Origin: Acidobacteriota bacterium
GTDB taxonomy: Bacteria > Acidobacteriota > Terriglobia > Acidiferrales > UBA7541
Direction of reading: 5' to 3'
DNA length: 64,000 nucleotides
NCBI GenBank assembly: GCA_003225315.1
Contig: QHZD01000021.1
Coordinates: 1 to 64,000, forward strand
Shown one piece after another: positions 1 through 13,320 of this stretch (the stretch's first letter is position 1; each line of letters opens with the position of its first letter). The notes under the pieces were generated by a model that saw only the letters and a program-made list of their open reading frames with translations, had not been told where the DNA came from and searched no databases. The translations under genes and the position numbers were made by a program.

Positions 1-275
1 TCCTTGTCGAAAATCGGTTTCCACACCACTCCGCCGTCCGTCGTTTTCCACACGCCTCCGCCGTCCGCCGCAAAATAATAGACCGCAGGATTTCCCGGCA
101 CGCCTGCGACGGCATTCACTTTCCCCGCGCGAAACGGCCCGATCATCCGCCACTTCATCTCCGAATAGAGCGATTCCGGGATTTGCTGCGCGCGCTCAAT
201 ACCTGCCATCACAAAAACACTGCAGCAGAGAAACGTAAAACCGAGCACGATTCGAGACGTTCGCAAACTCCTCAT
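1..275 (-). CDS. Sortilin/VPS10-like beta-propeller exoprotein, N-terminal part (cut by window edge)
   Basis: The minus-strand frame opens at ATG 275 and stays open for 91 codons to the left edge, so only the N-terminus is present. A hydrophobic signal-like stretch (residues about 8-25) is followed by YSEMKWRMIGPFRAGKVNAV, GGVWKTTDGG and VWKPIFDK. This matches residue for residue the pattern of the neighbouring 1100-aa protein (WRCIGPFRGGRTVAV, GGVWKTTDFG), so the two are paralogues. The SxDxGxxW-type Asp-box is typical of BNR/sortilin propellers, which are secreted. The next gene on the same strand ends at 313 and its start at 3615 lies upstream, so the two are probably co-transcribed with a gap of about 37 nt. 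Substrate unknown. Confidence 0.85.
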   Translation of the reverse strand, partial: MRSLRTSRIVLGFTFLCCSVFVMAGIERAQQIPESLYSEMKWRMIGPFRAGKVNAVAGVPGNPAVYYFAADGGGVWKTTDGGVVWKPIFDK

Positions 276-312
276 TCCTGTCCCTTTCGAGAATCGAGTG
301 CCCGGTAACAGA

Positions 313-3300
313 TCATGGTTCATCATTCCCATCGGAATCGGCGGATGGGGCGTTATCCGGTGATTTGTTCGCATCAATCTGCGCGAGTCCGGCTTTCTTC
401 AGCTCTGCGTTAAGCGCGGCAATGTCCTGCTGCCGGATCTTCGTCCACTGTGCAACGAGCTTCTGCAAGTCGTCTTCAAGCTCCTTGTACACGGCGGTAG
501 CTTGCGTCGTGGGCGCGGTGTCCGCACTATCTGCAACCGTCAGGAGTCCTCCGAAATGCTGGTTCAAGGTGGAAAAATTCTCCGGCTGTTGCGCACCTGG
601 CGGCAAGCCAAAGAAATTGCTCTGCGCGGCGCCTTCCATTTCGCCAGCCTGTTTATCCAGCGTCGCGATCGCATCCGCAACGGCGCCCTTCCCTGCTTTC
701 GCGGCGCGCTCCTTCAATTGTGCCCGCACCGATCGAACCTGCGCGAGCGCCTCGAAGCTCTCATTCATGCCTTCAACCGCGCCGCTCTCCATTTCAAATT
801 GTTTCCGAAGATCGGCGAGCGAAGTCTTGATGCGTGGGTCCATTTTCACAGCGAGCGGCTGAGAATAGCTCTTGCCGTCAACCGTCAATTTTGCTGTGTA
901 GTTCCCCGGCAAAGCCCACGCTCCGAGCGGATGTTTCGGCGTGTCGTGCACAATCGCAGAGATCGGGAATTCGTGCGCGAGAGAATCCGGCGGCGGGTAA
1001 TGCAGGTCCCACACGAACCGGTGCATCCCTGCAGCTCCGGAAAGAATTTGCGCCGGGCGCACCCAGTACATCGGAATGGGATGCTCACCAGCAATTTTCT
1101 CCAGAGGCTCGGCTTTGTCCGCAGTGGAATAGTGCCGCACCAGATGATTCTGTTCGTCGAAAATCTCCAGCGTAACCGGTTTGCCCGCGCTGGACGCTAG
1201 GTAGTAATCGATGGTCACACCATCTGGGGGATTTTTTCCCGCAGGGACTTCCGGCGGCAATGGCGTGTCCGGATTGCGATTCCAGCGAACGCGAATCGCT
1301 TCCTGCGGTGCAAAGAGGTGCACGCCCTCTTTGGCTATGTCTGCGTTCAGTTGACGCAAAGGCGTGATGTCATCCAAAATCCAGAACGAGCGGCCATGCG
1401 TGGCAACAATTAAATCGTCGCCATGAATCGCAAGGTCGCGCATCGACGTATGCGGTAAGTTCAACTGCAGCGGCTGCCAATCGTCTCCATCGTTGAACGA
1501 AACGTAAACGGAGCCTTCCGTACCCGCGAACAGCAATCCTTTTCGTACCGGATCTTCGCGCACTACGTTGCTGGCGCCACCATCGGGAATCCCTTTTGTA
1601 ATTTCCGTCCACGTTTTTCCGTAATCGCGCGTGCGGTAAATGTGCGCGCGCAAATCATCCAGCCGGAACGAATTGATCGCCGCGTACGCCGTGCCCGCAT
1701 CGAAGTGCGACGCTTCGATAATCGAAACTTTGCTCCACGGCTTCAACTGCGGCGGCGTGACGTTTTGCCACGACTTTCCACCATCGCGTGTGATGTGAAT
1801 CAATCCATCGTCCGTGCCCGCCCAGATGGTGTTCGCTTCTTTGAATGAAGGCGCCACGGCATAAATAACGCCGCGATGCTTTCCTTTCTCCGGATCGCTT
1901 GCCGCAAATGCACCTAGATTCGCGGGAATTTCATAAGTCTCGCGTGTGAGGTCGTCACTGATGATCTGCCAACTGTTTCCCGCATCCGTCGTTTTGAAAA
2001 GTTTGTTGGCCGCAAAATACAGTGTGTGCGGCTCGACCGGCGAAAAAACCACCGGCAGCGTGCGCGTGTAGCGATATTCACCGCGGCGAATCGGCTCCGG
2101 CGTAACCTTGGCGTACTCGCCGGTATCCTGTTTGGTGCGAGTCAGCCAGTCGCCATAAAGAATGTTCGAATCCAGCGGGTCCACCGCGATGTAGCCGTAC
2201 TCGAAAATTCCCGGCAGTCGCCAATCGCGGAACGTAATCTCGCCGTAATCGCTGCGGCTTTGCGTCGCCACGGAGCCGCTTTCCTGCTGAGCGCCGTAAA
2301 CCCAGTACGGAAAACGATTGTCGGTCGTGACGTGATAGAACTGCGCCGTCGGCTGGTTGTACCAACTGCTCCACGTCGCGCCGCCGTTCACGCTGATGAC
2401 CGTGCCCTGATCGGAGCTGAGCGCGATAATCTGCGGATTTTCCGGGCTGATCCAAATTCGCTGATAATCGTCGCCGCCGGGCGCGCCTTTGAATCCCACA
2501 AAAGTTTTTCCGCCGTCCGTGGATTTCCAAGTCGTCGTGTTCGCCACGTAAATCACGTCCGGATTGTCCGGCGCCACCGCGATCCCCATCGCGCCCGGGC
2601 CGCGGCCGCCAATGCGGCGGTCGCCATTCACCTGCTTCCAGGTTTCGCCGGCATCGTCCGAGCGATAAACTCCCGCGCCCTTCGTGGCCTCCGCCGAAAC
2701 ATAAATGCGCTTCGCATCGCTTGGCGCAGCGGCAATCCCGATTCGCCCGAGCCCTTCGCTCGCTCCCGGCAATCCCTTGGTCAAGGGCTTCCAGGTATCG
2801 CCGCCATCCGTTGATTTATACAGCCCGCTCCCCGCGATATAGATCGAGCCGCCGCTGCGCACCTCCCACGGCGCAACGCGCGCAGCCCACAGTACCGCGT
2901 AAATCGTCTGCGGATTCGTGGGATCGAATGCCAGATCGGCGGCGCCGGTGTTTTCGTCCTTGTAGAGAACTTTCTGGAAAGTCTGCCCGCCATCGGTCGA
3001 ACGAAAAACGCCGCGCTCGGCGTTGGGACCGTAAGGGTGTCCTTCGGCAGCAACGAAAATGCGGTTGGGATTTTTCGGGTCGACGAGGATCGCGGTGATT
3101 TGTTGCGCGTCGCGCAGACCCCCTTTTTCCGGACCCCCTTTTTCTAAACCAACGTGCGTCCAGGTTTTTCCCGCGTCGGTGGATTTGTAGACCCCATCGC
3201 CGGTGGCCAAATCCGGGCGTTGTAAACCTTCGCCGCTGCCCACGTAAATAATGTTCGGATCGGAAGGAGCAACGGCCAGCGCGCCGACCGAGCCGGTCGG

Positions 3301-3615
3301 CTGATCGTCGAAAATCGGATTCCAGGTGTTTCCAAAATCCGTGGTCTTCCAGACGCCGCCATTGACGGCCGCCATATAGAAGATATTGGGTTGGTGCGGC
3401 ACGCCAGAGACGGCCACGGTACGGCCTCCGCGGAACGGCCCGATGCAGCGCCAGCGCATTTCGGAATACAGTTTCTGATCAAATAGCTGGCCGACCTTCT
3501 GGTCGACTTGCTGCGCCTTCGCCGCAACACTAAATGAAAAACATAAAGCTGCGCAAAAAATACTTGCGCCGACGATTCCCGCGCTGAACCACTTCCCTGC
3601 CGCACCGATTCGCAT
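313..3615 (-). CDS. Sortilin/VPS10-like beta-propeller exoprotein (glycosyl hydrolase-like BNR repeats)
   Basis: An 1100-residue protein with an N-terminal signal peptide (about residues 1-35, ending VAAKAQQ). It carries many Asp-box repeats of the form S-T-D-G-G-x-T-W (for example STDAGKTW, STDGGQTF, SDDAGETW, TRDGGKSW) spread over residues 90-760, as in sortilin/VPS10 and BNR sialidase-like propellers. The last 300 residues are helical and hydrophilic. The start is supported by GGAGG six bases before ATG 3615. Such proteins are numerous in Acidobacteriota and are often annotated as glycosyl hydrolases, but no catalytic residue set can be assigned here. It is a close paralogue of the genes at 1-275 and 19351-22515. 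Likely periplasmic or extracellular; ligand unknown. Confidence 0.9.
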   Translation of the reverse strand: MRIGAAGKWFSAGIVGASIFCAALCFSFSVAAKAQQVDQKVGQLFDQKLYSEMRWRCIGPFRGGRTVAVSGVPHQPNIFYMAAVNGGVWKTTDFGNTWNPIFDDQPTGSVGALAVAPSDPNIIYVGSGEGLQRPDLATGDGVYKSTDAGKTWTHVGLEKGGPEKGGLRDAQQITAILVDPKNPNRIFVAAEGHPYGPNAERGVFRSTDGGQTFQKVLYKDENTGAADLAFDPTNPQTIYAVLWAARVAPWEVRSGGSIYIAGSGLYKSTDGGDTWKPLTKGLPGASEGLGRIGIAAAPSDAKRIYVSAEATKGAGVYRSDDAGETWKQVNGDRRIGGRGPGAMGIAVAPDNPDVIYVANTTTWKSTDGGKTFVGFKGAPGGDDYQRIWISPENPQIIALSSDQGTVISVNGGATWSSWYNQPTAQFYHVTTDNRFPYWVYGAQQESGSVATQSRSDYGEITFRDWRLPGIFEYGYIAVDPLDSNILYGDWLTRTKQDTGEYAKVTPEPIRRGEYRYTRTLPVVFSPVEPHTLYFAANKLFKTTDAGNSWQIISDDLTRETYEIPANLGAFAASDPEKGKHRGVIYAVAPSFKEANTIWAGTDDGLIHITRDGGKSWQNVTPPQLKPWSKVSIIEASHFDAGTAYAAINSFRLDDLRAHIYRTRDYGKTWTEITKGIPDGGASNVVREDPVRKGLLFAGTEGSVYVSFNDGDDWQPLQLNLPHTSMRDLAIHGDDLIVATHGRSFWILDDITPLRQLNADIAKEGVHLFAPQEAIRVRWNRNPDTPLPPEVPAGKNPPDGVTIDYYLASSAGKPVTLEIFDEQNHLVRHYSTADKAEPLEKIAGEHPIPMYWVRPAQILSGAAGMHRFVWDLHYPPPDSLAHEFPISAIVHDTPKHPLGAWALPGNYTAKLTVDGKSYSQPLAVKMDPRIKTSLADLRKQFEMESGAVEGMNESFEALAQVRSVRAQLKERAAKAGKGAVADAIATLDKQAGEMEGAAQSNFFGLPPGAQQPENFSTLNQHFGGLLTVADSADTAPTTQATAVYKELEDDLQKLVAQWTKIRQQDIAALNAELKKAGLAQIDANKSPDNAPSADSDGNDEP

Positions 3616-3703
3616 CCGAGTCCTCCGTGAGAAAACAGAGGATACTCTGCCCGCCGAATCGGAGCAATGCGCAGCGAGCTTCAGCGCGCCGCCATTGTAG
3701 TGG

Positions 3704-3794
3704 CCGGTCTTCAGACCGGTTCTGTTTCCAGCTCTTTAGGGGGTCGGAGCTTCAGCTCCGACATTAAACGCAGACATCCACCGGGCTTCAGCCC
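3704..3794. repeat. Three TTCA-loop palindromes in tandem
   Basis: Three hairpins sharing the core pattern GG-x-CTTCAG-x-CC lie within 91 bases: CCGGTCTTCAGACCGG at 3704-3719, GTCGGAGCTTCAGCTCCGAC at 3743-3762 and GGGCTTCAGCCC at 3783-3794. They sit between a minus-strand gene and the plus-strand hicB gene. A similar hairpin occurs at 57988-58007, and a related GGGCTGAAGCCC sequence at about 15881. None is followed by a T-run, so they look like REP-type dispersed palindromes rather than terminators. Confidence 0.6.
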
Positions 3795-3917
3795 CTAAAG
3801 AATGTCGCTTATCCGGTGCTATCGGGACTAGGGACACTATTCGACCATCCACCTAGTTCAGAAACCCGCCCCTCCAGACTTCTCGTGTTAAACTCCATGT
3901 TAAGGATAGAGGTCCAA

Positions 3918-4127
3918 ATGATCTTCCATGTTTCGCTTGAAAAAGCTGAAGACGGCTGGATCGTGGCGCAATGCCCCGCACTGCCGGGGTGTGTGTCGCA
4001 GGGAAAGGACGAGCAAGAAGCTCTCGAGAACATCAAGGAAGCCATCACCGCGTGGTTATGGGCCGAAGATCAAAAAGCGGTAAAGGCCCTGGGATCTGAT
4101 CGCACGCCGGTAGTCGTCGCTGTTTGA
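3918..4127 (+). CDS. hicB: HicB-family antitoxin
   Basis: A 69-residue protein. The sequence MIFHVSLEKAEDGWIVAQCP followed by ALPGCVSQGKDEQEALENIKEAI is the classic HicB partial RNase-H-like fold (GW-x-A-x-CP-x-LPGC-x-SQG, then EALENIKEAI). It would neutralise the HicA mRNA interferase encoded immediately downstream. The frame is open further upstream to 3816, but ATG 3918 is preceded by AGAGG at a good distance and the family's usual N-terminus begins exactly there. The C-terminus lacks the DNA-binding extension found in long HicB proteins. The gene precedes the toxin gene, the reverse of the canonical hicAB order. Confidence 0.82.
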   Translation: MIFHVSLEKAEDGWIVAQCPALPGCVSQGKDEQEALENIKEAITAWLWAEDQKAVKALGSDRTPVVVAV

Positions 4128-4136
4128 CGGGACTTG

Positions 4137-4370
4137 ATGCGGGAGCGAATGGGGCGCCTCGGCAACATATCCGGCAAGGAAGCGACGCGCGCCTTCGGCA
4201 AAGCGGGCTGGCAAGTCATGGGGCAGGTGGGAAGTCACGTGGTAATGACGAAATCCGGAGTGCGGGCGAATCTCTCGATCCCGCAGCACAAGGAGCTATC
4301 CACTGGAACGCTACGAGCGTTGATCCGCGCGGCAGGAATGACGGTTGAAGAATTTCTAGCACTTCTTTGA
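4137..4370 (+). CDS. hicA: HicA-family toxin (mRNA interferase)
   Basis: A 77-residue protein containing ISGKEATRAFGKAGWQVMGQ, then GSHVVMTK and a C-terminal LSIPQHKELSTGTLRALIRAAGMTVEEFL. This is the HicA double-stranded-RNA-binding-like fold, including the catalytic His of the G-S-H motif (residue 34). The start is uncertain: TTG 4134, ATG 4137 and ATG 4149 are all in frame. The last gives the family-typical MGRL-x-x-ISGKE N-terminus but has its Shine-Dalgarno too close. Only 9 nt separate it from the hicB stop, so the two genes form one toxin-antitoxin operon. Confidence 0.82.
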   Translation: MRERMGRLGNISGKEATRAFGKAGWQVMGQVGSHVVMTKSGVRANLSIPQHKELSTGTLRALIRAAGMTVEEFLALL

Positions 4371-4454
4371 AGCCTCGCCGGCAAAGCCTTTCCTCATTTC
4401 TCGTCACCTGCTGCTTCAGCGCCCGTAAGAGCACGCAACGCGAACGAAAACAGT

Positions 4455-4679
4455 ATGAAGAAGAAAACTGAGAAACGAGAACGGCGTGACGAACTGCGTC
4501 GGGAGTACGGCCTCTCTAAATTGAAAGGCGGCGTCCGCGGCAAATATACTGCGCGCTATCGCACAGGAATCCCGCCCCCGTTGCACTCAGTCGCCTTGAT
4601 AGCGAAGCTACGGCGAAACGAAGCATTGAATACTACCGAAAGATTGCAACAGGGAGTAAGTTCTTCTAGAAACAAATAA
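4455..4679 (+). CDS. Small antitoxin-like protein, C-terminal half divergent
   Basis: A 74-residue basic protein. Its first half (RRDELRREYGLSKLKGGVRG then KYTARYRTG) resembles a widespread family of small proteins of about 70 residues usually found beside toxin genes, recognisable by DELR-x-EY-D/G-x-SKL-x-GGVRGKY-x-x-RY. In that family the second half reads like GTNLV-x-L-x-PDVA and then NEALR. Here the sequence after RYRTG does not match, apart from a possible NEAL, and another frame stays open to 4667. This suggests a frameshifted or degenerate copy. It lies 84 nt after hicA in a toxin-antitoxin-rich spot. Function not demonstrated. Confidence 0.45.
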   Translation: MKKKTEKRERRDELRREYGLSKLKGGVRGKYTARYRTGIPPPLHSVALIAKLRRNEALNTTERLQQGVSSSRNK

Positions 4680-4817
4680 TCTCGTAAACAACAGAATATA
4701 TTTGACTTACACTATATAGTTCATCCTGACTATAGCACCCTCTCACCTAGTAACATTCCCACTTTACATTTTGAGCTAACTCCATTACTCTTTCTGGGAC
4801 TTCAGAGGGAGCAAGAT

Positions 4818-5312
4818 ATGACTGACTTTTTCGAAGAACTAAAGATCAGATTTGCAGATGCCCAGAAACGCCTCGTAGCTCAGCAGCAAGAAATGCAAGC
4901 AGTACAAGCTCGCTATCAGGCTGTTGCGCAGGAATTCAACAGCTTGCAACTTCTGTTGAATGTTGAGGCTGGCAAACCTGAAAATAACCCTGCCGCCGGT
5001 ACAGCAGAGGCCGCTGCAAATGCTAACGCAATAACCGTGGGCGCGAGTACGTCTGGACGAGCTGCACCGCCGTTAGCCACTGATATCAATAAAACAGACA
5101 TGGTTCGAGAGCTGCTCCGGCAGCATCCCGCTGGAATAACTCCGACTGACTTATGGAAACAGGTTAAGACTCGAATGACCCACCGAGCATATTTGTACAG
5201 CATTTTGAAACGGCTCAAAGACAAAGACGAAGTCATGGTCCGACGCGGAAAATATATCGCGAAAATGGTGCCGAAACCTGAGGAGGGGAAAGAACAACCA
5301 ATTTTGCACTAA
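4818..5312 (+). CDS. Hypothetical protein: N-terminal coiled coil plus C-terminal winged-helix-like domain
   Basis: A 164-residue protein I cannot assign to a named family. Residues 1-50 (FFEELKIRFADAQKRLVAQQ and onwards) are a Gln/Ala-rich coiled coil. Residues 55-85 are a low-complexity Ala/Gly/Asn linker. Residues 95-155 (TDMVRELLRQHPAGITPTDL, then WKQVKTRMTHRAYLYSILKR, then DEVMVRRGKYI) have the helix-turn-helix-wing layout of small DNA-binding winged helices. AGAGGGAGC lies just before ATG 4818. The 138 bases upstream are AT-rich (4680-4817), with a weak promoter-like TTGACT at about 4702. A gene for a dimeric DNA-binding protein next to the odd tRNA is noteworthy but no link is shown. 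Confidence 0.65.
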   Translation: MTDFFEELKIRFADAQKRLVAQQQEMQAVQARYQAVAQEFNSLQLLLNVEAGKPENNPAAGTAEAAANANAITVGASTSGRAAPPLATDINKTDMVRELLRQHPAGITPTDLWKQVKTRMTHRAYLYSILKRLKDKDEVMVRRGKYIAKMVPKPEEGKEQPILH

Positions 5313-5319
5313 GAAAGAC

Positions 5320-5358
5320 CAGCGGCTGGCGAACCTTAGAGGGAGCCACCAGCCGCTG
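5320..5358. other. Perfect 10-bp hairpin between a CDS and the class II tRNA
   Basis: CAGCGGCTGG (5320-5329) pairs perfectly with CCAGCCGCTG (5349-5358) across a 19-nt loop. It lies 7 nt after the stop of the upstream CDS and 14 nt before the tRNA. No T-run follows, so it may be a weak terminator or a processing/stability element rather than a standard intrinsic terminator. Confidence 0.5.
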
Positions 5359-5372
5359 ATCTCCATGATCTT

Positions 5373-5475
5373 GGGGACGTGGCCGAGTGGTCTAAGGCAC
5401 CTCACTGTTAATGAGGCGGCAGAGGTGGGGTACATCCACCAAAGCCCGTAGGTTCGAATCCTATCGTCCCCGCCA
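5373..5475 (+). tRNA. Class II tRNA with anticodon GUU (Asn codons) on a tRNA-Ser-like body
   Basis: A complete cloverleaf can be drawn. Acceptor stem GGGGACG (5373-5379) pairs with CGTCCCC (5465-5471); discriminator G 5472 and an encoded CCA 5473-5475 follow. D-arm GCC/GGC spans 5382-5398. Anticodon stem CCTCA/TGAGG encloses loop CTGTTAA (5405-5411), so the anticodon is GTT at 5407-5409. T-stem GTAGG/CCTAT encloses TTCGAAT. The variable region is 31 nt (5417-5447) and folds as GGC/GCC plus GGTGG/CCACC. The D-arm (GCCGAG...AAGGC), anticodon loop and G73 closely resemble tRNA-Ser(GCU), differing in the middle anticodon base. Ordinary tRNA-Asn is class I with a variable loop of 4-5 nt. The structure is intact, but amino-acid identity cannot be read from the anticodon alone. 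Confidence 0.8.
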
Positions 5476-5614
5476 ACTCGGACCGACGAGAGACCCCTAT
5501 CTTGTGGAACGGAGGCTCCAAGTGTTTTTGTACTACATTCGCGAGTTACCAGCAAGTGAAAGTTGCGGGCGAGCGGCCCATCCTTGGGAGCTTGCAAGGG
5601 TGGGGCTGTCTTCG

Positions 5615-5757
5615 CTAGCCTCTTTGTTTCTATGAACTTTGGCTCGGCTCCCGGATTGCAATTCCCTCTTCTAGTTTCTGCCTTCGAATCTCCAGCTTTC
5701 CTTCCCTCTAACTCCTCTCTCCCGACCTTATAGGCAGTATAAATCTATTTATTGACG
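5615..5757 (+). repeat. Upstream direct repeat (degenerate leader/promoter copy)
   Basis: This stretch begins with a 25-nt sequence (5615-5639: ctagcctctttgtttctatg and onward) identical to 7230-7254. Similarity continues, imperfectly, through TCTTCTAGTTTCTGCCTTC to a TATAAAT...TTATTGAC segment that matches TATAAAG...TCATTGAC at 7349-7365. It therefore flanks the pentapeptide-protein gene on its left as a direct repeat of the region that precedes the promoter-bearing element on its right. Here the -35 is TTGACG and no good -10 follows. The rest of 5476-5921 shows no gene. Confidence 0.6.
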
Positions 5758-5921
5758 CGGACGTGCAGCGGATGTAGCCTAGCCGTATTTCACGGCCCCG
5801 TTACAGACTCTGGAAAACTTCCGTCATTTCACTTGTGAGCGCAGTAGTTCTCGCGCTTACCGTCAACGTCAACAAGGTGCGGTGCCCCGTGAAAACTCTC
5901 AATAGAGAGGAGACTGACATC

Positions 5922-7133
5922 GTGGACAAAGAGCATGAACAGCTGGACTCCGCGGCAGCCGAGACGAAGCCATCGAAGCGTGCCGAGGAAAGTGCCTCCA
6001 AGCAGCCAAAATCCCCAGATGCGCTGGACACCATCGAGAAAAGAGCCGTAGAGCAGGCAGAATCCTCGCAGGATCCGGACTTCACAGCCAAAGCCCTGGA
6101 CATCGCGAAGACCGTGAGCGAAATGCGCAAGCTGAGAAGTGAGACAGAAAAGATCACTTTAGATGCTAACGAAGCCTCACGCGAACATAAGGCTGCGGCC
6201 ACAAGATATTATATGACAATCCTGACGACGACTTCCGCAGTCGCGCTGGCAGCAGCAACCCTGGGTTTTCAAATCTGGCAGCAACGTTCCAACACTGAAC
6301 TTCAAACAGACACGCAGAAACTTCAAATAGATGCAAATGAAGACTCGCAATGGCGCGACACAGTCAAGACCTTGAACAGCCCGGGCACAACACTCGTCAG
6401 TGCTTTTGAAATGGGCAGTTTTTTCTATTCGAAACACCATTCGATGCAAGCACGAAACATTGCCGCCACCTTGTTGCCAACCCTTGACAATCCAGACGCG
6501 TTCGACACCGTCCTTTTTGACATGCTCGATTACGATGACGCGTCGAACGGTAGGCATATCATCGCTATCTCGAGAACCGTTTTTAATTCCCAGTTGGACC
6601 TGTATGGAATCAACGTAGGGATGAAGCAGCCATTGCGACTTGATTTTCCAACTCTCAAGAAAATACTGGGCGATGATGAACCTCCCAATTTCATCAGCCA
6701 GGATGTGGCCAGCCGCAAGAGAGCGTCGGTGGCCCCCTGGATGCTCGATAGCGTCAGCGCTGCCCTGCTTGACCTTTGGCTCACGAAGAAAGCCACTCCA
6801 GGGAAAGATCTGGGCGGAATTGTCCTCGAGAACGGCAACTTTAATGGGTTGGACTTTTCGCACATCGACCTGAAAGGTGGAGCTTTCTATAACGCTACCT
6901 TCACGGGAGCAAACTTTGCGGGGACGGACTTCACAAGGAGATTGATTTCACATGCGAACGTGGCCGGGGCTGATCTCAGCGGGGTCGTGGACTTCTCGGA
7001 AAGCAAGTGGGAACTCACGAATTGGTGGGATGCAAAATGCCTCTCCGAAGTACTGCTTCACTACCTTGAGAATAATGATGCCACAGCGAGTTCGGAAAAT
7101 AAGGCTAAGGCGCATGCGATCTCATGTCACTAA
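5922..7133 (+). CDS. Membrane-anchored protein with C-terminal pentapeptide repeats
   Basis: A 403-residue protein from GTG 5922, which has a good ribosome site (GAGAGGAG at 5905-5912). The frame is also open from GTG 5835, giving 432 aa. Residues about 1-95 are charged, Glu/Lys/Ala-rich and probably coiled coil. A single membrane segment follows at about 97-118 (YYMTILTTTSAVALAAATLG). A soluble middle domain of unknown fold spans about 130-290. The C-terminal stretch about 296-355 has pentapeptide-like A(D/N)Lxx/F repeats (NFNGLDFSHIDLKGGAFYNA, then GANFAGTDF and GADLSGVVDF). The gene is isolated and bracketed by direct repeats at 5615 and 7230, so it may be an acquired cargo gene. Function unknown. 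Confidence 0.75.
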   Translation: MDKEHEQLDSAAAETKPSKRAEESASKQPKSPDALDTIEKRAVEQAESSQDPDFTAKALDIAKTVSEMRKLRSETEKITLDANEASREHKAAATRYYMTILTTTSAVALAAATLGFQIWQQRSNTELQTDTQKLQIDANEDSQWRDTVKTLNSPGTTLVSAFEMGSFFYSKHHSMQARNIAATLLPTLDNPDAFDTVLFDMLDYDDASNGRHIIAISRTVFNSQLDLYGINVGMKQPLRLDFPTLKKILGDDEPPNFISQDVASRKRASVAPWMLDSVSAALLDLWLTKKATPGKDLGGIVLENGNFNGLDFSHIDLKGGAFYNATFTGANFAGTDFTRRLISHANVAGADLSGVVDFSESKWELTNWWDAKCLSEVLLHYLENNDATASSENKAKAHAISCH

Positions 7134-7229
7134 CAACATGGTTGCGAGCAGGCTACCACTGGATTCGCGGGTGGCCTACTTTTTCGAGTTTAGCTATTGA
7201 AACGTGGGCTATTCTTCACCTAGCCTTCT

Positions 7230-7366
7230 CTAGCCTCTTTGTTTCTATGAACTTGACTCGGCTCCCAGGCTGCAATCTTCTCTTCTTCTAGTTTCTGCCT
7301 TCTAGTTTCCCATTTTTGCCTTGCTGTAAGTCCTTTCCTATCAGTCCTATAAAGTAATCATTGACA
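7230..7366 (+). repeat. Downstream direct repeat flanking the pentapeptide gene
   Basis: This is the right-hand partner of the repeat at 5615-5757. The first 25 nt are identical, and about 50 further positions are alignable (CTCGGCTCCC, TGCAAT, TCTTCTAGTTTCTGCCTTCT). It runs directly into the strong promoter at 7361-7388, so it is both a flank of the pentapeptide gene and the leader of the promoter-bearing element. Confidence 0.6.
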
Positions 7367-7715
7367 AAGTATATTAATATGCTATAATGGGTTTATTGAG
7401 TCCGGCACGACTCCTCCGTCTGCCCGCCACAGCCCAGGGTGCCCCACGAACCATGTGCGCCTTTTGCATCCCCGTTTCCGTACCGGGGCTCGCCCCCCAA
7501 GCCGTCCTTCTAACTGGTTCAGTGTCGTTGTGCCTCCGGCAGATCCCCTCCCCAGCAGAACGAACAAGTCGAATTTGCGTCACTTCCCACCCTCGCCTTA
7601 AGTCCTTTAGCTGCAACACTTATCAATCTCTTCGCAAAAGTACTGCAAACAAACGACTTACAGTTTTGCTAAACCTTTTAGATGCAACACTTACAAAAAA
7701 CATAGGGGGTGGGGT
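7353..7715 (+). repeat. Dispersed transcribed element, copy 1 (possible ncRNA or small ORF)
   Basis: About 360 bp starting at AAGTAATCATTGACAAA and ending at AAAAAACATAGGGGGTGGGG. The first 200 bp align without obvious gaps to the reverse complement of 58390-58612: for example CCTGCCCGCCACAG, TGCGCCTTTTGCATCCC versus TGCGTCTTTTGCATCCC, and CGTCCTTCTAACT versus CAGTCCTTCTAACT. Both copies start at a consensus promoter and end in an A-run followed by a G-rich tract. An ORF beginning MGLLSPAR is open in this copy and MGSLSRHD in the other, in register, but neither resembles a known protein. A structured RNA or a selfish repeat is as likely as a peptide gene. Confidence 0.65.
7361..7388 (+). promoter_or_regulatory. 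Near-perfect sigma-70 promoter of dispersed element, copy 1
   Basis: TTGACA at 7361-7366 and TATAAT at 7383-7388 are separated by 16 bases, with an extended -10 (TGC immediately before TATAAT). The same hexamers, spacing and TGC are kept in the second copy at 58575-58602 on the minus strand, while the spacer between them has diverged. That conservation supports a functional promoter. Confidence 0.8.
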
Positions 7716-7881
7716 CCAGTTATTGTTAACTAGAATCTCTAAGATCTCAGCGTGGTTGTTTTTGCTTCGAGGGGGATCGCGGCGGCTCTCCGAGATAGTA
7801 CGGCGCGCTCACGGTGAAGATGCGCTCGTTGCCGCGCACCAGCAGCATCCATTCCAGCAAGCGGCCGCTTCTGCCACGGAG

Positions 7882-8388
7882 TTATTGGGGCGCAATCTCC
7901 TTAGGGCTGGAGAAAATGACGGCGAGCGCCCACAGATTGAGGCCGAACGTGAGGACGTGAAGGACGTCGTTGACTCCCGACCAGCGGGAGACGGTCAGAA
8001 ATATTTGCTGGAGTTGAGCGGCATTGGTGCCCGCGTCCCGCAAAGCGAACATCTCCGGGAGAATGAGCGCGCGAGTGACGGTCGCCCAAACAATCGCCAG
8101 CAGGGCCGCGGCGTGGATGGGAAAGCGGCGCGAACCGCGCGCGGTACGGTCCAGGCGAAAGGCGAGCGCGGCGGAAACCGTGAAGAGCAGCGCCGCAAGG
8201 CCGAGCACAGGATAGAAAAGAGCTCCAATCCCGACATTTTCTGCGCGCGTGAAGTTTGCCCAGGGAATGACGCCGAGGCGTTCCCACGCCGGCAGCAGGA
8301 CGAAGGCTCGGTTGGCGGTCACGCCCGCTTGCAAGCCGCCGAAAAGGGCGGCGCCAAGCGCAAGACCTTTGGTTGAGGAAGAAGCCAT
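7882..8388 (-). CDS. DUF1772-like four-helix membrane protein
   Basis: A 168-residue integral membrane protein with about four hydrophobic segments (GLALGAALFGGLQAGV near the N-terminus, GIGALFYPVLGLAALLFTVS, FPIHAAALLAIVWATV and a C-terminal HVLTFGLNLWALAVIF). The motif NRAFVLLPAWERLG, then a TRAENVGIGALFYP segment, resembles DUF1772 (anthrone-oxygenase-like) proteins of about 150-170 residues. The start is at ATG 8388, 24 nt from a divergent region. The same reading frame stays open for 44 codons beyond the TAA stop, to TGA at 7747-7749. Biochemical role unknown. Confidence 0.7.
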   Translation of the reverse strand: MASSSTKGLALGAALFGGLQAGVTANRAFVLLPAWERLGVIPWANFTRAENVGIGALFYPVLGLAALLFTVSAALAFRLDRTARGSRRFPIHAAALLAIVWATVTRALILPEMFALRDAGTNAAQLQQIFLTVSRWSGVNDVLHVLTFGLNLWALAVIFSSPKEIAPQ

Positions 8389-8649
8389 CGGGTTGACCTC
8401 CCTTGGAACGGAATGAGCGTTCTACAGGGAGTTTACGAGGCGAAGGAAGCAAGGGTTACAGCGGTAGGTTCCGGAATCGACTCAGCGGCTCCGCTTACGG
8501 GGGTTTCATTTTGGCAAACCGGCAAACATTTTGTGGACACGGATTTGGTTTTGCTCTTACTATTTTGCTGGGTGGGCGCCGTGCCCAGCGTGCGCACTTC
8601 CCGGGGAACCTCATGTTCAACCATTTCAACGCACAGGGGGGAAGCGCTG

Positions 8650-9228
8650 ATGGCGCAGTCGCAGCACGCTACATCATCATTCCACAAGCCGCTCCCATAT
8701 CTCTCACCCGGGCAAATCAAGGAAATCTGCGAAGCGGGCGAGAATTACATATCGGAGCAACGAAGCCGGTTTTTGGGGCGCGGCGCAAACTTGTCGCGCG
8801 GACAAATATCCAGGCTGTCCGCATTTTTCCGGTCCGACTTACTGAACTCGATCCGGCTGTTCGTTCTGGAAGACGATCGAGTTCCTAATCCACCGTTTTA
8901 TCCCACGCTGCGCGCGATGGGCTTTGCCAGCCTGCCCGATTTTGCGCTGATGGCGGCGGCGACCTTCAGAGATGTAATCGTTTCGTACGAAGCGTGCTCC
9001 GAGGGAGTGCTTTTCCATGAGCTGGTGCATGCAGAGCAATATCGCCAGCTCGGCGTGGGCCGCTTCGCGGAACTGTACATTCGCGGATTTCTTTCCGGCG
9101 GCGGCTACGACGGGATCCCGCTGGAGGTCAACGCGTACTCGCTGGGGGCGCGCTTCGAGGATCGCCGCGAGGCGCACTTTTCCGTCGAGGCGGAAGTTTC
9201 GTCGTGGATTAGACGGCGCGCGTTCTAG
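8650..9228 (+). CDS. HExxH-containing putative metallopeptidase-like protein
   Basis: A 192-residue protein. ATG 8650 is preceded by a strong GGGGGGAAG ribosome site; the frame is open upstream to 8413 but that part lacks coding character. The central sequence ACSEGVLFHELVHAEQYRQL contains HELVH, a zinc-binding HExxH motif, at about residues 124-128. A Glu-containing helix (GYDGIPLEVNAYSLGARFED) follows 25-30 residues later and could supply the third ligand, as in gluzincins. There is no signal peptide and no membrane segment. The arrangement resembles DUF4157-like domains, but I cannot assign a family. The C-terminus is basic (SWIRRRAF). Confidence 0.65.
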   Translation: MAQSQHATSSFHKPLPYLSPGQIKEICEAGENYISEQRSRFLGRGANLSRGQISRLSAFFRSDLLNSIRLFVLEDDRVPNPPFYPTLRAMGFASLPDFALMAAATFRDVIVSYEACSEGVLFHELVHAEQYRQLGVGRFAELYIRGFLSGGGYDGIPLEVNAYSLGARFEDRREAHFSVEAEVSSWIRRRAF

Positions 9229-9347
9229 TTTTGGAGGACGAATACGGACAAAGGCGCAGGCTTTAGAAATTGAGCACAAGAAGACGGAGGATCTATTTTC
9301 TTGGCCCGTGGGGTCCCTTATGTTTGAGGAGAAGGGGGATCATCCAT

Positions 9348-9773
9348 ATGTCGAACAAGATGTATGCGCTCGCGGTATGCCTGGTTTTTGCGGGTGTGTG
9401 CGCCGCCAAAGAGCACGACTACCAAAAAGGGACTTTGCTGCGAATGGACTCGACATCCTGCGGGATGCAGGAAAAGGGATCGAAGTCCTTGACTGGTGAA
9501 TTGCTGGGCACGGACGCGCAAAGCAAGAAAACTCAGGAAGTGCTTTGCCAGGAATATGTGCTCCAGACCGAGCGGGTGGTCTACCGGATTCGCCCGAAGG
9601 ACGACAAGCACCCGGTGCTGCTGCCGATCGGGGAGACGGCGCATTTCCGGATTCATAAGGATAAATTGATTCTGAAAGTGGCGGAAGGCGGCGACGATAA
9701 AGAGCGGGAATACATTGTGGTGTCCATGACGCCGCGACAGGATGCTCCGCAGCAGGCAGCGAGCAAAAACTAG
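9348..9773 (+). CDS. Small secreted protein of unknown function
   Basis: A 141-residue protein from ATG 9348, which has the ribosome site AGGAGAAGGGGG nine bases upstream; a longer frame from 9270 lacks one. A signal peptide is visible (MSNKMYALAVCLVFAGVCAA). The mature part is hydrophilic and beta-rich, with two Cys close to each other (TSCGMQEKG, then EVLCQEYVLQTERVVYRIRP). No family recognised, although Acidobacteriota commonly carry such single-domain exported proteins. A strong intrinsic terminator follows at 9800-9835. Confidence 0.7.
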   Translation: MSNKMYALAVCLVFAGVCAAKEHDYQKGTLLRMDSTSCGMQEKGSKSLTGELLGTDAQSKKTQEVLCQEYVLQTERVVYRIRPKDDKHPVLLPIGETAHFRIHKDKLILKVAEGGDDKEREYIVVSMTPRQDAPQQAASKN

Positions 9774-9799
9774 GTCACGTTTCAAAGAGATTGAGAGAA

Positions 9800-9835
9800 A
9801 CGGCGCTCCGACGCGGTCGGGGCGCCGTTTTGTCT
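9800..9835 (+). terminator. Intrinsic terminator
   Basis: ACGGCGCTCCGAC (9800-9812) pairs with GTCGGGGCGCCGT (9816-9828) around a 3-nt loop, with one G-U pair, and is followed by TTTTGTCTT. It lies 26 nt after the stop of the small secreted-protein gene. The 170 bases after it (to 10007) hold no gene. Confidence 0.8.
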
Positions 9836-10007
9836 TATGAGTGCAGCGGAAAAAGGCGAAGAAAAAGATTTAACGCAGAGGTCACAGAGTTTGCAGACGA
9901 CACAGAGTAGAGAGATTTCTCTCCACGCAGGCCGACCGCCCCGATTCGGAATCGGGCGAGAAGAAAAAATCGGCCTGCTTCGCTCGAAATGACGGGCTTG
10001 GGAGGCA

Positions 10008-11072
10008 CTATGGCGCGTGTGCGGCGGGGACGCCGAGGTCGGCAATGTTGTCGCCTTTTTTGAGCGAAGGAACGGCGTTGACGTGGAGGACTATCCCGGA
10101 GACGGGGGCGCGAGGCTCGGCGATAACTTTGCCGACATAGTCGGTGATGGTGCCGAGTTTCATTCCGGCGGAGACGTAGGCGCCGCGCTTGACGAGGGGA
10201 TACCAGATGCCGGGGCCCTCGGCGAGAACGTCGACTAGTTTTTCAATCCAAACAGGATTTTCGATGGTGTGCGGCTCGCCTGGAAGCATTCTGAGCGCGC
10301 GCATGGTGCTGAGGGTGCCGTTGACGAGGAGAGCGACGTCATCGGACTCGACTGTGCCGGCGTGCCCGGCTTCGACAACGATGGAAGGCTTGCCGCGGAT
10401 GGAAGCCGTGTTATCGAGATAACGGGTGGCGGCGGGATCGGTGGGACGTTCGCGCCAGATGATAATGTGATCGAGGCCGAAGGCGAGGACCATTTCCTTG
10501 GAGGTGCGGTCCTGGGCCTCGCGGCCAGTGGGGCCCCAGTAGGCGTAGGGGCGAAGGCTCTCGTCGAGGTCGCCGCCATGATAGTCGATGAGGTAGTCGC
10601 AGCGGTCAACGATTTCCTTGGTGATGAGGTAGGAGGCGCGCTCGGTTTGCGTGCCATCGGCTTTGCCGGGGTAAAACCGGTTCATGCTTTTGTTGTCGAC
10701 GGGATTGACGTGGGGGACTTTTTGTTCGAAGGACTGAATGTTGATGAGCGGAACGAGGATGACGGTGCCCGTGACTTGCGCGGGGTCGAGAGCGGCGATG
10801 AGTTTTTCGATGGCGATGATGGAGACGTATTCGGTGCCGTGCGCGCCGGAGACGAGCGCGAGGACTTTGCCGGGCTTGGCGCCGTTTACGACGACGATGG
10901 GAATGCTGGTGGACGCATCGACGCCGGCGGGGACTTCGAGAGCGCCGGCGGATTTTTCGCCGGGAGCGGCGGAGGCGGTGCCGACTGTGAATTTAGATTG
11001 CGCCGAAACGGGCATACAACAAAACGAAACGAGAAACAGGGCGCCAAAAATCGAATCACGGAGACGCATCAT
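10008..11072 (-). CDS. Succinylglutamate desuccinylase/aspartoacylase-family (M14-like) exported hydrolase
   Basis: A 354-residue zinc-hydrolase-like protein with a signal peptide (about residues 1-25, ending PVSAQ). Zinc ligands are visible in GAHGTEYVSI (H-x-x-E) and in the later YLIDYHGGD. A likely catalytic Glu lies in VVEAGHAGTVE. The C-terminal part is a beta-barrel-like extension, as in AstE/AspA relatives. The start codon overlaps the stop of the upstream S9 peptidase gene by 4 bp (ATGA), which implies translational coupling. An exported amide or peptide hydrolase working with the S9 peptidase on extracellular peptides is plausible; the substrate is unknown. Confidence 0.82.
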   Translation of the reverse strand: MMRLRDSIFGALFLVSFCCMPVSAQSKFTVGTASAAPGEKSAGALEVPAGVDASTSIPIVVVNGAKPGKVLALVSGAHGTEYVSIIAIEKLIAALDPAQVTGTVILVPLINIQSFEQKVPHVNPVDNKSMNRFYPGKADGTQTERASYLITKEIVDRCDYLIDYHGGDLDESLRPYAYWGPTGREAQDRTSKEMVLAFGLDHIIIWRERPTDPAATRYLDNTASIRGKPSIVVEAGHAGTVESDDVALLVNGTLSTMRALRMLPGEPHTIENPVWIEKLVDVLAEGPGIWYPLVKRGAYVSAGMKLGTITDYVGKVIAEPRAPVSGIVLHVNAVPSLKKGDNIADLGVPAAHAP

Positions 11073-13186
11073 TCACCTACGGCTTTCGTCGCAGTCACCG
11101 ATGGCTCCGACGGGCGCGGCGGCGTGGAGTCGCCTTTGACGTAGTGGGCGTACCAGGCGAGGTAGCGCTCGAGGCGGTCCTTGATGTGAGACGGAGTGGT
11201 GAAGCCGTGAAACTCGCCCGGGTAGACGACGAGCTCGGTGGTGCGGCCCAGGCTCTTTAGCGCCTGGTACATCTGCTCGCCACCGATAATGGGAACGTTC
11301 CAGTCAACGTCGCCGCCCATGAAAAGGGTGGGCGTAGTGATGTTGTTCACGCGATAGTAGGGAGAGATTTTTTCCCACACGGTTTTGTTTTCCCAGGGAC
11401 GGCCCAACTCGGAGTCGTAGTCTCGAATGTATTGGTCATGGCCGTAGCCGCTGGTCATCAGCGCAATGCCGGCGCCAGAGATGGCAGCTTTGAAGCGCGT
11501 GGTCTGGGCGATGATGAAGTCGGTGGACATGCCTCCGTAGGACCAGCCGCCCACACCGAGCTTGTCGGGATCGGCAATGCCTTGCGCAACGGCGTAATCG
11601 ACCATAGCCATGTCGTCCTGAAAATCCTTGTTGCCCCAGTCGGCAAAAATGGCTTCGCAGAATTTTTGGCCGTAGCCGGAAGAGCCGCGCGGATTGGGAA
11701 GAAGAACGGCGTAACCGTTGGCCGCGTAGAGCTGCGCGAGATGGTAGAAGGAAGCGGAATATTGGCCGACCGGTCCGCCATGGGGATTGAGCAGCGTGGG
11801 GACTTTTTTGCCGGGAGTGTAGTCGACCGGTTTGTAGAGATATCCGGCGACGGAAGTGTCGTCCTTGCTTTTGAAATGAACGTAATCGGCTTGGGCGAGA
11901 CGCAGTTGCGAGAAGAGCGCATCGTTCGTCTTTGTGAGTCGAGTGAGATCCTTTTCATTCGAAAGAAAGATTTCGTCCGGGCGATCGAGAGTGCTGATTT
12001 GCGCGGCGATCGCGCCGTCTTTGCTGAGCGAATAAGAGGCCACAACAAGGCGACCGCCGATGGGGCGCGTGACTTCACCACCGCTGATGGCGATGCGGCA
12101 GAGATTTTCTGTGCCGTCGTCGTCTGCAATGAAGTAGATGGAGCGGCCGTCGGCGGAGAAACACGGGCGACGGATGCTGCGGTCGAATGCCAGAGTCAGA
12201 ACTTTCGCCTCGCCGCCGGAGGAAGGAGCGATGGCGAGATGATGAGTGGCGTAGATCATGGCCTTCATGTCGATTTCGCTGATGAAGGCGATCCATTTGC
12301 CGTCGGGTGACCAGGCGGGCGAACGGTCAGGACCGGGATTGGTGGTGATTTGTGTGAGGTGCGCGCCCTTGTCGGTGTTGTTGGCCGCGACGACCCAGAT
12401 GTCCGAATTGTAAGTGGCGTCGGGATCGGGAGTGGAGCGATTGCTGGCGAAAGCGAGTGATTTGCCGTCCGGTGACCAGGCGGGCTCGGAATCGTCGAAG
12501 TCGCCAGAGGTCACTTGCGTACTTTTTTTCGAGGCGACGTCGAAGACGTAGAGATGGGTGCGGCGGCGGTCGAGATAGCCGACGGTGTCGCGCTTGAACT
12601 GGAGACGATCAATCACGAAGGGCGGCGGAGTTTTGGGTTTGGCAGCGGCGGTGGGCTTGTCTTTGTCCTTGTCTTTGGCAGCTTCCAAGTCCTCCGGCTT
12701 GGGATCGCGAAGAACGAGAACCAAGCGAGTGCTGTCCGGAGACCATTCGAAATCGTCAACACCTTGAGGAATATCGGTGAGGTGAGCGGCTTCGCCACCA
12801 AGGCGATTGAGAAGCCAGACCTGGGTTTTGCCATTATTTCGGGCGGAGAGGAAGGCAAGGTACTTGCCGTCAGGGCTCCAGCGAGGATGCGAGGAGGAGA
12901 CGCCTTCGGCGGTCAAGGAGATGGGATCTCCGCCGTGCGTGGAAACCATCCAGAGGCGCTGCTCGTTCTTGTCTTCCTTGAGCATGCGCGTGCGCACGGC
13001 GTAAACGACCCACTGGCCATCGAGACTGATCTCGGGTTGCGAGACATCGCGAATCTGGAAGTAGTCGTCAATGGTGATGTTGCGTGGAGCGGCAGAGGCA
13101 GGCTTCGGCGCGGATTCCTGAGCGCGGATGCGTAGCCACGGAAACAAAACAAGAGACGCGAGGGCTAGACAGCGAAAGGTTTTCAT
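11069..13186 (-). CDS. S9 family prolyl oligopeptidase (acylaminoacyl-peptidase-like), secreted
   Basis: A 705-residue protein with a signal peptide (about 1-22), an N-terminal seven-bladed PD40/TolB-like propeller (repeats such as WSPDGKYLAFLS, WSPDGKSLAFAS, WSPDGKWIAFIS) and a C-terminal alpha/beta-hydrolase. The catalytic triad is visible: Ser in GGWSYGGMS, Asp in GGDVDWNVP and His in GEFHGF. The start has GAGGAG upstream. It is the first gene of a tight pair with the aspartoacylase-like gene. Likely function is cleavage of short peptides in the periplasm. Confidence 0.92.
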   Translation of the reverse strand: MKTFRCLALASLVLFPWLRIRAQESAPKPASAAPRNITIDDYFQIRDVSQPEISLDGQWVVYAVRTRMLKEDKNEQRLWMVSTHGGDPISLTAEGVSSSHPRWSPDGKYLAFLSARNNGKTQVWLLNRLGGEAAHLTDIPQGVDDFEWSPDSTRLVLVLRDPKPEDLEAAKDKDKDKPTAAAKPKTPPPFVIDRLQFKRDTVGYLDRRRTHLYVFDVASKKSTQVTSGDFDDSEPAWSPDGKSLAFASNRSTPDPDATYNSDIWVVAANNTDKGAHLTQITTNPGPDRSPAWSPDGKWIAFISEIDMKAMIYATHHLAIAPSSGGEAKVLTLAFDRSIRRPCFSADGRSIYFIADDDGTENLCRIAISGGEVTRPIGGRLVVASYSLSKDGAIAAQISTLDRPDEIFLSNEKDLTRLTKTNDALFSQLRLAQADYVHFKSKDDTSVAGYLYKPVDYTPGKKVPTLLNPHGGPVGQYSASFYHLAQLYAANGYAVLLPNPRGSSGYGQKFCEAIFADWGNKDFQDDMAMVDYAVAQGIADPDKLGVGGWSYGGMSTDFIIAQTTRFKAAISGAGIALMTSGYGHDQYIRDYDSELGRPWENKTVWEKISPYYRVNNITTPTLFMGGDVDWNVPIIGGEQMYQALKSLGRTTELVVYPGEFHGFTTPSHIKDRLERYLAWYAHYVKGDSTPPRPSEPSVTATKAVGE

Positions 13187-13320
13187 GCGGCAAAACTCCT
13201 CAGAAGAAAAATGGAGTGCGATCCGGGGGCGTAGTGTAGCAGAGGGAGAGACAGAGGATGTTTGAAAAAATGCGGCGCGTTCACCTGCGAAGGCTCTGCT
13301 TGCGACGAGGAGGCGATCCG

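What the first reader, a model, noticed from the sequence alone, without database searches (positions are those of the whole stretch)
5373..5475. Intact class II tRNA carrying an Asn (GUU) anticodon on a tRNA-Ser(GCU)-like body
Seen: every stem pairs, CCA is encoded, the variable arm is 31 nt with a strong GGTGG/CCACC stem, and the D-arm, CTGTTAA anticodon loop and G73 match tRNA-Ser(GCU) except for one anticodon base (GCU to GUU). Known: bacterial SerRS recognises the long variable arm and G73 and ignores the anticodon, while AsnRS requires GUU and a class I body. Inference: this tRNA could be serylated and insert Ser at AAC/AAU codons, act in a stress or regulatory setting, or be a non-translating tRNA-like RNA. 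The 31-nt arm is also longer than in usual class II tRNAs.
Basis: partly seen in the sequence, partly recalled or inferred. Interest (0 to 1): 0.75.

Follow-up and report, generated by a model that had tools for sequence, protein, structure and literature searches.

The report
Transposon-type tRNA with swapped anticodon
A bacterial tRNA gene has the body of a serine tRNA but the anticodon for asparagine, and its closest parallels ride inside small jumping genes that carry whole families of such mismatched tRNAs, a way to alter how the genetic code is read that we have not found described.

Summary
The gene is real: an intact class II tRNA at 5373-5475, anticodon GUU, G73, encoded CCA, 31-nt variable arm. 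The genome also has two ordinary tRNA-Asn, tRNA-Ser(GCU) and AsnRS. A pattern search of 399 class genomes found no other copy. Its neighbour led further. The upstream gene has a 40%-identical homologue in a same-genus genome, followed, as here, by a hairpin and a 31-nt-arm class II tRNA with a switched anticodon (Leu body, Pro anticodon). That set lies inside an IS1595-family transposon with terminal repeats and an 8-bp target duplication. In 110 IS1595 loci of the class, 22 of 27 predicted tRNAs have long arms and none of the 22 an anticodon normal for such bodies; 400 kb of control DNA from 16 of the same genomes held none. Leu bodies keep A73, Ser bodies G73. Best reading: orphaned transposon cargo, with no transposase or terminal repeats left, probably charged by anticodon-blind SerRS with AsnRS competing, so putting Ser (and Asn) at AAC/AAU. 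Charging and expression are untested; a codon test for private recoding was inconclusive.

The parts
5373..5475 (+). class II tRNA gene, anticodon GUU, G73, encoded CCA
   Evidence: Rfam RF00005 59.6 bits; cloverleaf parse; one blast match in the own genome
5407..5409 (+). anticodon GTT in loop CTGTTAA (5405-5411)
   Evidence: cloverleaf parse
5417..5447 (+). 31-nt variable arm, two-tier stem GGC/GCC and GGTGGG/TCCACC
   Evidence: parse and fold
5316..5362 (+). long hairpin between the upstream gene and the tRNA, apex CCTTAGAGGGA
   Evidence: inverted repeat; stretch 5313-5372 folds with z -3.93, 0 of 200 shuffles as stable; matching hairpin in G032 (L194 1424-1494), z -5.24, 0 of 200
4818..5312 (+). 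164-aa gene, read by eye as coiled coil plus winged helix; homologue in G032 lies inside an IS1595 transposon
   Evidence: 40% identity, E 1.2e-27; no Pfam family at its cut-off; element bounds
3673..7225 (.). lineage-specific segment that holds the gene, hairpin and tRNA; absent from the syntenic site of the two nearest genomes found
   Evidence: conserved flanks end at 3672 and resume at 7226 (G001) or 7761 (G002); GC 0.522 against 0.573 for the window

Best explanation
Shown: the window tRNA is an intact Ser-nearest class II tRNA with an Asn anticodon, downstream of a gene and hairpin whose one close relative among the class genomes searched lies inside an intact IS1595-family transposon together with another long-arm, anticodon-swapped class II tRNA; and IS1595-family transposons of this bacterial class repeatedly carry such tRNAs. 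Inferred: the window copy is orphaned cargo of such an element that has lost its transposase and ends. Inferred mechanism: SerRS and LeuRS do not depend on the anticodon, so swapping it on a Ser or Leu body gives a tRNA still charged with Ser or Leu but reading another codon. The window tRNA would thus deliver Ser at AAC/AAU in competition with two normal tRNA-Asn, and part of it would be charged with Asn by AsnRS. In the transposon such a tRNA would change how its own or the host's mRNAs are read.
For: Same order gene-hairpin-long-arm tRNA, same strand, in window and G032 (gaps 60 and 71 nt). The G032 set lies between repeats CGGAATTATCCACTTG[G/A]CAGACCC with duplication GGATTTTC. In 110 IS1595 loci (454,039 bases): 27 predicted tRNAs, 22 with arms of 9 nt or more, in 20 loci, 22 of 22 with a non-Leu/Ser/Tyr/Sec anticodon (one, L280 Arg, is doubtful; one, L239, is the G032 locus that prompted the search); control 20 x 20 kb from 16 of the same genomes: 1 tRNA, 0 class II. 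A covariance search of 90 of the 110 loci found L250 and L260, which ARAGORN had missed, and in the controls only the one normal tRNA. Of 18 tRNA-bearing loci with longer flanks, 17 have inverted repeats enclosing the tRNA and 12 of these also an 8-bp duplication (two of the 12, L384 and L385, hold class I tRNAs). Identity signs kept: 17 Leu-nearest tRNAs have A73 (16 by script, L278 re-read by one base) and 8 Ser-nearest have G73; window, L111 and L090 are Ser-nearest with G73. Window tRNA has G1-C72, G2-C71, G73 and a long arm, the bacterial serine features given in PMC9976931 section 26.
Against: No transposase on the 138,916-base contig (best hit E 0.40), no tested terminal repeat nearby, no enclosing repeat pair with duplication: the window locus itself fails the transposon test. 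The link rests on one relative at 40% identity. L090 (Rhodobacteraceae, argG neighbour) shows no transposase in its 8-kb ORF list, by eye, so a long-arm GUU tRNA can occur without one. Phage class II GUU tRNAs suggest that some such tRNAs may simply be Asn tRNAs. No expression or charging data. Five plasmid IS1595 elements with a related passenger gene and four further plasmid loci held no such tRNA. Most of the 110 IS1595 loci (90) show no class II tRNA by ARAGORN.
Confidence: 0.6

Rival explanations
1. It is an extra tRNA-Asn: AsnRS charges it through GUU and G73, tolerating the long arm, and it simply adds Asn supply or resists an anticodon nuclease.
For: Anticodon plus G73 gave a tRNA-Lys Asn identity (PMC9976931 section 30); AsnRS present; 19 nt of anticodon arm identical to a class I tRNA-Asn of this genome; 42 of 74 viral loci from three pattern scans carry GUU tRNAs with arms of 10 nt or more, many in tRNA arrays and several with U1-A72 acceptors (contigs partly redundant, some arms weakly paired).
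Against: Its IS1595 relatives carry Pro, Ala, Ile or other anticodons on Leu or Ser bodies with A73 or G73 that keep the body's own identity, which this rival does not explain; the body here is Ser-nearest, G1-C72.
Confidence: 0.25
2. The tRNA-like RNA is not used in translation; together with the hairpin and the upstream protein it regulates the element or the host.
For: Shared hairpin beside the tRNA whose apex resembles the start region of the upstream gene.
Against: The window gene keeps U33, A37, a normal T loop and CCA; among the transposon tRNAs anticodons recur across divergent elements (UGG in 11, UAU in 7, UGC in 4). Against this, some of those tRNAs lack an encoded CCA or have an odd T loop.
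Confidence: 0.1
3. A chance product: a relic tRNA from a mobile segment, intact but silent.
For: One copy, no other found in 399 class genomes by pattern; no sigma-70-like promoter in 5100-5950 by a simple consensus scan; segment absent from the nearest genomes.
Against: The cloverleaf is intact and CCA is encoded; the acceptor stem pairs 7 of 7 in 25 transposon relatives.
Confidence: 0.15

Closest known systems
tRNA-ProX of Streptomyces and Kitasatospora (dual-identity mistranslating tRNAs)
   Same: body of one amino acid with the anticodon of another, including Asn (PMC11415595 section 17, read)
   Different: Pro body, A33 and A34, partnered with ProRSx; here Ser or Leu class II bodies, no synthetase partner seen, carried by IS1595-family transposons
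IS1595-family transposons (PF12762) with passenger genes
   Same: transposase, terminal repeats and 8-bp duplications at G032 and other loci
   Different: a tRNA gene as cargo; I recognised none in the listings (listings only, papers not read)
tRNA-Ser(CAG) of Candida and relatives
   Same: anticodon-swapped Ser-bodied tRNA changes the reading of a codon (PMC11415595 passages)
   Different: nuclear eukaryotic gene and fixed code change, not mobile
Phage-borne tRNA arrays
   Same: GUU tRNAs with class II-length arms occur there
   Different: 18-25 nt arms, Tyr-like or Gln-like features by eye, mostly in tRNA arrays

Membership tests
tRNA (Rfam RF00005) | cloverleaf above gathering score | tested here: met
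   59.6 bits against 29
tRNA-Ser | long variable arm, G73, G1-C72, G2-C71 | tested here: met
   features from PMC9976931 section 26
tRNA-Ser | Ser anticodon | tested here: not met
   GUU
tRNA-Asn | GUU anticodon and G73 | tested here: met
   PMC9976931 section 30
tRNA-Asn | class I body | tested here: not met
   31-nt variable arm
IS1595-family transposon (window locus) | transposase gene | tested here: not met
   best tblastn E 0.40 on contig C14
IS1595-family transposon (window locus) | terminal inverted repeats with 8-bp duplication | tested here: not met
IS1595-family transposon (G032 locus, L371) | transposase, repeats and duplication enclosing the tRNA | tested here: met
   PF12762 E 6.8e-34 (on L194, the same locus); 4850-8099, duplication GGATTTTC
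tRNA-ProX | Pro body, A33, A34, ProRSx neighbour | tested here: not met
   Ser-nearest body, U33, G34; no synthetase seen by eye in the ORF list of 1-14000 or in the six window proteins scanned
allo-tRNA (recalled) | 8/4 or 9/3 acceptor-T arrangement | tested here: not met
   7/5 here; definition recalled
serylated mistranslating tRNA | charged with Ser and read at AAC/AAU | not testable with these tools
   needs bench work

The most novel reading that the evidence does not exclude
IS1595-family transposons run a private code: each element's genes use codons (AUA, CCA, GCA, AAC/AAU, UAA) that its own anticodon-swapped, SerRS- or LeuRS-charged tRNA reads as Ser or Leu, so the element works properly only where its tRNA is expressed, and the window tRNA is a stray from such an element. 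Not excluded: matching codons are enriched in the transposases (AUA 30 of 133 Ile-family codons against 99 of 1379, Fisher 1.4e-7; CCA and GCA p about 0.03) and carry weak support for their standard meaning (0.23, 0.47 and 0.20 bits per codon), but clade-like control sets reach such values in 56 of 217, 22 of 300 and 14 of 300 cases and the standard residue still outscores Ser or Leu; the AAY and UAA cases gave no support.
Probability: 0.12. Interest if true: 0.97.

Novelty: categorically new. Interest (0 to 1): 0.85.

Why it matters
Transposons that carry tRNAs with switched anticodons would be mobile agents of programmed misreading: they could spread ambiguous decoding between bacteria, or lock their own genes to a private code. 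That would give a concrete route to how codon reassignment starts, a long-standing open question. Such genes are easy to miss: ARAGORN as usually run did not report this one, and a large screen for alternative codes excluded transposon proteins from its input (PMC8629427 passage). Because the G032 element has transposase, terminal repeats and target duplication, the idea can be tested directly in a laboratory strain.

Tried and rejected
Decay of a nearby tRNA-Ser: rejected, one copy and no related tRNA on the contig. Integrase att site: the 3' end recurs in the own genome only at 3 mismatches, in two tRNA-Asp 3'-half fragments on other contigs, so no paired att site was found. Plasmid or phage copy of the tRNA or of the upstream protein: only partial tRNA matches, and no protein match. 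Most of the 51 genome contigs pattern hits look like tRNA-Asn with an archaeal-type intron, or tandem T-arm artefacts, judged by eye; my parser kept 7, and of these L090, L098 and L111 are bacterial class II GUU tRNAs, L098 with T73 and no CCA. Wider Alphaproteobacteria: 1 of 385 genomes, the query's own; the L111 genome was not the centre. Upstream protein profile across the phylum: 1 of 396 genomes, the own one (G032 gave no row there). UAA use beside the UUA tRNA of L378: the transposase ends at UAG and its frame then shows further stops; no other frame was examined. AAY codons of the L111 transposase: 10, of which 6 lie where the four nearest relatives mostly have Asn; one (position 50) lies where more distant ones often have Ser. 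Conserved-Ser or conserved-Leu columns: AUA none; CCA one C-terminal column (Leu in 71 of 110 transposases), Pro in 11 of 12 Pro-anticodon elements and 4 others; confounded by ancestry and not seen for the Ala-anticodon group. L111 repeats are imperfect and without a duplication. In one search five of 27 tRNAs have short arms: L243 and L246 (Leu-nearest, Pro anticodon, 6-7 nt), L259, L321 Ala and L369; L280 Arg, counted among the 22, is an intron-type prediction without CCA and doubtful. L250 and L260 were found later and are not in the 22. Loci were taken down the ranked list, not at random; L290 and L296 are near-identical in tRNA.

Full report
WHAT IS THERE. Window 5373-5475 (+) is an intact class II tRNA: acceptor 7/7, D stem 3, anticodon stem 5/5, T stem 5/5, loop CTGTTAA, 31-nt variable arm with a two-tier stem, G73, encoded CCA; RF00005 59.6 bits, E 5e-12. 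ARAGORN as run by the tool misses it and with introns allowed reports tRNA-Asn(gtt). It has one blast match in the genome, itself. The own genome (4,975,678 bases, 57 contigs, completeness 97.64) gave 50 RF00005 matches, with 150 of 160 candidates scored; among the other 49 are two class I tRNA-Asn(GUU) and tRNA-Ser(CGA, GGA, UGA, GCU). AsnRS scores 457.5 bits against a cut-off of 342.6. So the gene is not needed for Asn decoding.

BODY. With the anticodon masked, the nearest own tRNAs are Ser(GGA) and Ser(CGA), then a class I Asn. The 19-nt stretch CACCTCACTGTTAATGAGG of the anticodon arm is shared with the class I tRNA-Asn on contig C25, so a partial conversion is possible.

DISTRIBUTION OF THE tRNA. 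Blast of 89 family genomes gave 16 with matches: the own gene, 13 class I tRNA-Asn, one tRNA-Asp and one locus without a predicted tRNA. A pattern for class II GUU tRNAs matched 3 of 399 class genomes: the own gene, one non-tRNA and one tandem artefact, judged from the matched sequences. It matched 1 of 385 Alphaproteobacteria in a slightly different form. A stricter pattern over genome contigs gave 51 loci, of which I keep three as bacterial class II GUU tRNAs: L111 (Hyphomicrobiaceae, 34-nt arm), L090 (Rhodobacteraceae, 30-nt arm) and L098 (Lachnospiraceae, 23-nt arm, T73). In viral contigs, GUU tRNAs with class II-length arms turned up in 31 of 37 loci and in 11 of 37 further loci, often inside tRNA arrays. 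Their arms are 18-25 nt and some pair weakly. So class II bodies with GUU exist elsewhere, but arms of 30 nt or more were seen only in the window, L090 and L111.

NEIGHBOURHOOD. The tRNA lies in a segment (3673-7225) missing from the syntenic site of the two nearest genomes found: conserved flanks at 92% (G001) and 85-87% (G002) identity enclose different contents there. Segment GC is 0.522 against 0.573 for the window. A 164-aa gene (4818-5312, no Pfam family at its cut-off) precedes the tRNA by 60 nt, with a stable hairpin between them (z -3.93).

THE LINK. Of 299 class genomes, 3 hold a relative of that 164-aa protein at E 1e-8: the own one, G032 (same genus, 40% identity, E 1.2e-27) and a weak one, G115, 24%, near which no tRNA was predicted. 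In G032 the gene is followed after 71 nt, on the same strand, by a hairpin (z -5.24) and then another long-arm class II tRNA: Leu-nearest body, A73, anticodon GGG (Pro), 31-nt arm. The apex of both hairpins reads CCTTRGAGGGA, similar to the start region of the same gene. Downstream and convergent lies an IS1595-family transposase (PF12762, E 6.8e-34). With more flank, the whole set sits between near-identical terminal repeats at 4850-8099 with the 8-bp duplication GGATTTTC. L111 also has an IS1595 transposase beside its tRNA and two similar small ORFs, with only imperfect repeats. Plasmid relatives of one of these ORFs sit beside an IS1595 transposase in 5 of 5 fetched records (best place of each), with perfect 18-base repeats in two, but without such a tRNA.

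SURVEY. The G032 transposase matched in 124 of 379 class genomes at E 1e-40. I examined 110 loci: 30 fetched by the tool and 80 taken down the ranked list; one of them, L239, is the G032 locus itself. ARAGORN with introns allowed predicts 27 tRNAs in these 454,039 bases. Twenty-two, in 20 loci, have a variable arm of 9 nt or more and none of the 22 has a Leu, Ser, Tyr or Sec anticodon: Pro (UGG, GGG), Ala (UGC), Ile (UAU), Asp (GUC), one UUA, and one doubtful Arg (L280). The other five have short arms: L243 and L246 (Leu-nearest, Pro anticodon), L259, L321 Ala and L369. Twenty 20-kb control stretches from 16 of the same genomes gave one normal tRNA-Val and no class II tRNA; a covariance model likewise found only that one. 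The model, run on 90 of the 110 loci, gave 19 matches and added L250 and L260, both UGG; it did not list some that ARAGORN has (L277, L290, L296, L321). In 18 tRNA-bearing loci refetched with longer flanks, 17 have inverted repeats of at least 17 of 20 enclosing the tRNA, 12 of these with an 8-bp duplication, and one (L376) has none; L384 and L385 among the 12 hold class I tRNAs. In comparison, 0 of 8 arbitrary placements in the window gave a repeat pair with a duplication, though pairs of 16-18 of 20 without one are common.

IDENTITY. Every Leu-nearest transposon tRNA has A73 (16 by script, L278 re-read by one base) and every Ser-nearest one G73 (8); window, L111 and L090 are Ser-nearest with G73. 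The anticodons of these 25 are all foreign to the body. This is what one expects if the tRNAs are kept chargeable by LeuRS or SerRS, while the codon they read is switched. For the window tRNA the anticodon's own enzyme is a serious competitor, because anticodon plus G73 sufficed for bacterial Asn identity in a transplant (PMC9976931 section 30). Charging itself is inference.

CODON TEST. I asked whether the transposases use the codon read by their own tRNA at positions that suggest another residue. The matching codon is enriched (AUA 30 of 133 against 99 of 1379; CCA 32 of 110 against 165 of 833; GCA 21 of 69 against 390 of 2020) and supports its standard residue weakly, yet the standard residue still scores above Ser or Leu, and clade-like controls reach the same low support in 56 of 217, 22 of 300 and 14 of 300 cases. 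The test is inconclusive; 88 or 85 transposases without a known tRNA served as reference.

LIMITS. The window locus itself has no transposase on its contig, no tested terminal repeat and no enclosing repeat pair with a duplication, so I do not file it as a transposon, only as probable orphaned cargo. Expression and charging are unknown.

LITERATURE. Searches for class II tRNA-Asn, for IS1595 with tRNA or passenger genes, for mistranslating tRNAs, and for transposon-borne or noncanonical tRNAs listed no paper that I recognised as describing this; I saw only listings for most. Read: PMC9976931 passages and sections 26 and 30; PMC11415595 passages and section 17; PMC8450103 and PMC8629427 passages. 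The library holds only open-licence papers.

Noticed in passing
window 3897-4370: HicB-like antitoxin (Pfam above cut-off) followed by a HicA-like ORF at 4137-4370 (recognised by eye); the lineage-specific segment looks rich in toxin-antitoxin genes.
   Followed up: partly
L168, L169 (G000 contigs C4 and C13): Two 3'-half fragments of tRNA-Asp, typical of integrase attachment sites; no full tRNA-Asp was seen among the 50 tRNA matches of the genome (150 of 160 candidates scored).
   Followed up: no
L378 1365-1549: Tandem tRNAs in one IS1595 element, one with anticodon UUA (ochre-suppressor type, Ser-nearest, G73) and one with UAU.
   Followed up: partly
L250, L251, L260, L278: Transposon-borne UGG tRNAs share a T loop TGCAAAT, with G in place of the usual U55.
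   Followed up: no
L260 2645-2720: A second tRNA-like gene, with apparent Cys anticodon, A33 and T73 (read by eye), beside the UGG tRNA.
   Followed up: no
L385 8461-8536 and L384 3332-3411: Class I tRNAs inside IS1595 elements whose anticodons (ACU, AUU) also differ from their nearest bodies (Arg; Ala/Arg) (on L369 and L259, the same loci).
   Followed up: no
window 5610-5693 and 7225-7310: A direct repeat of about 85 bp at 85% identity flanks the pentapeptide-repeat gene; a shared core CTAGCCTCTTTGTT also lies near the junction in G001.
   Followed up: no
viral loci L122, L129, L130, L137, L140, L141, L146, L152-L154: Phage tRNA(GUU) with a shared, weakly paired variable region ending ATTGAAATAAA.
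   Followed up: no
L371 6765-7436; L388 6745-7344; L266 802-1491: NYN-type nuclease genes (Pfam for the first, on L194; by eye for the others) beside the transposon tRNAs; possible functional link with tRNA.
   Followed up: no
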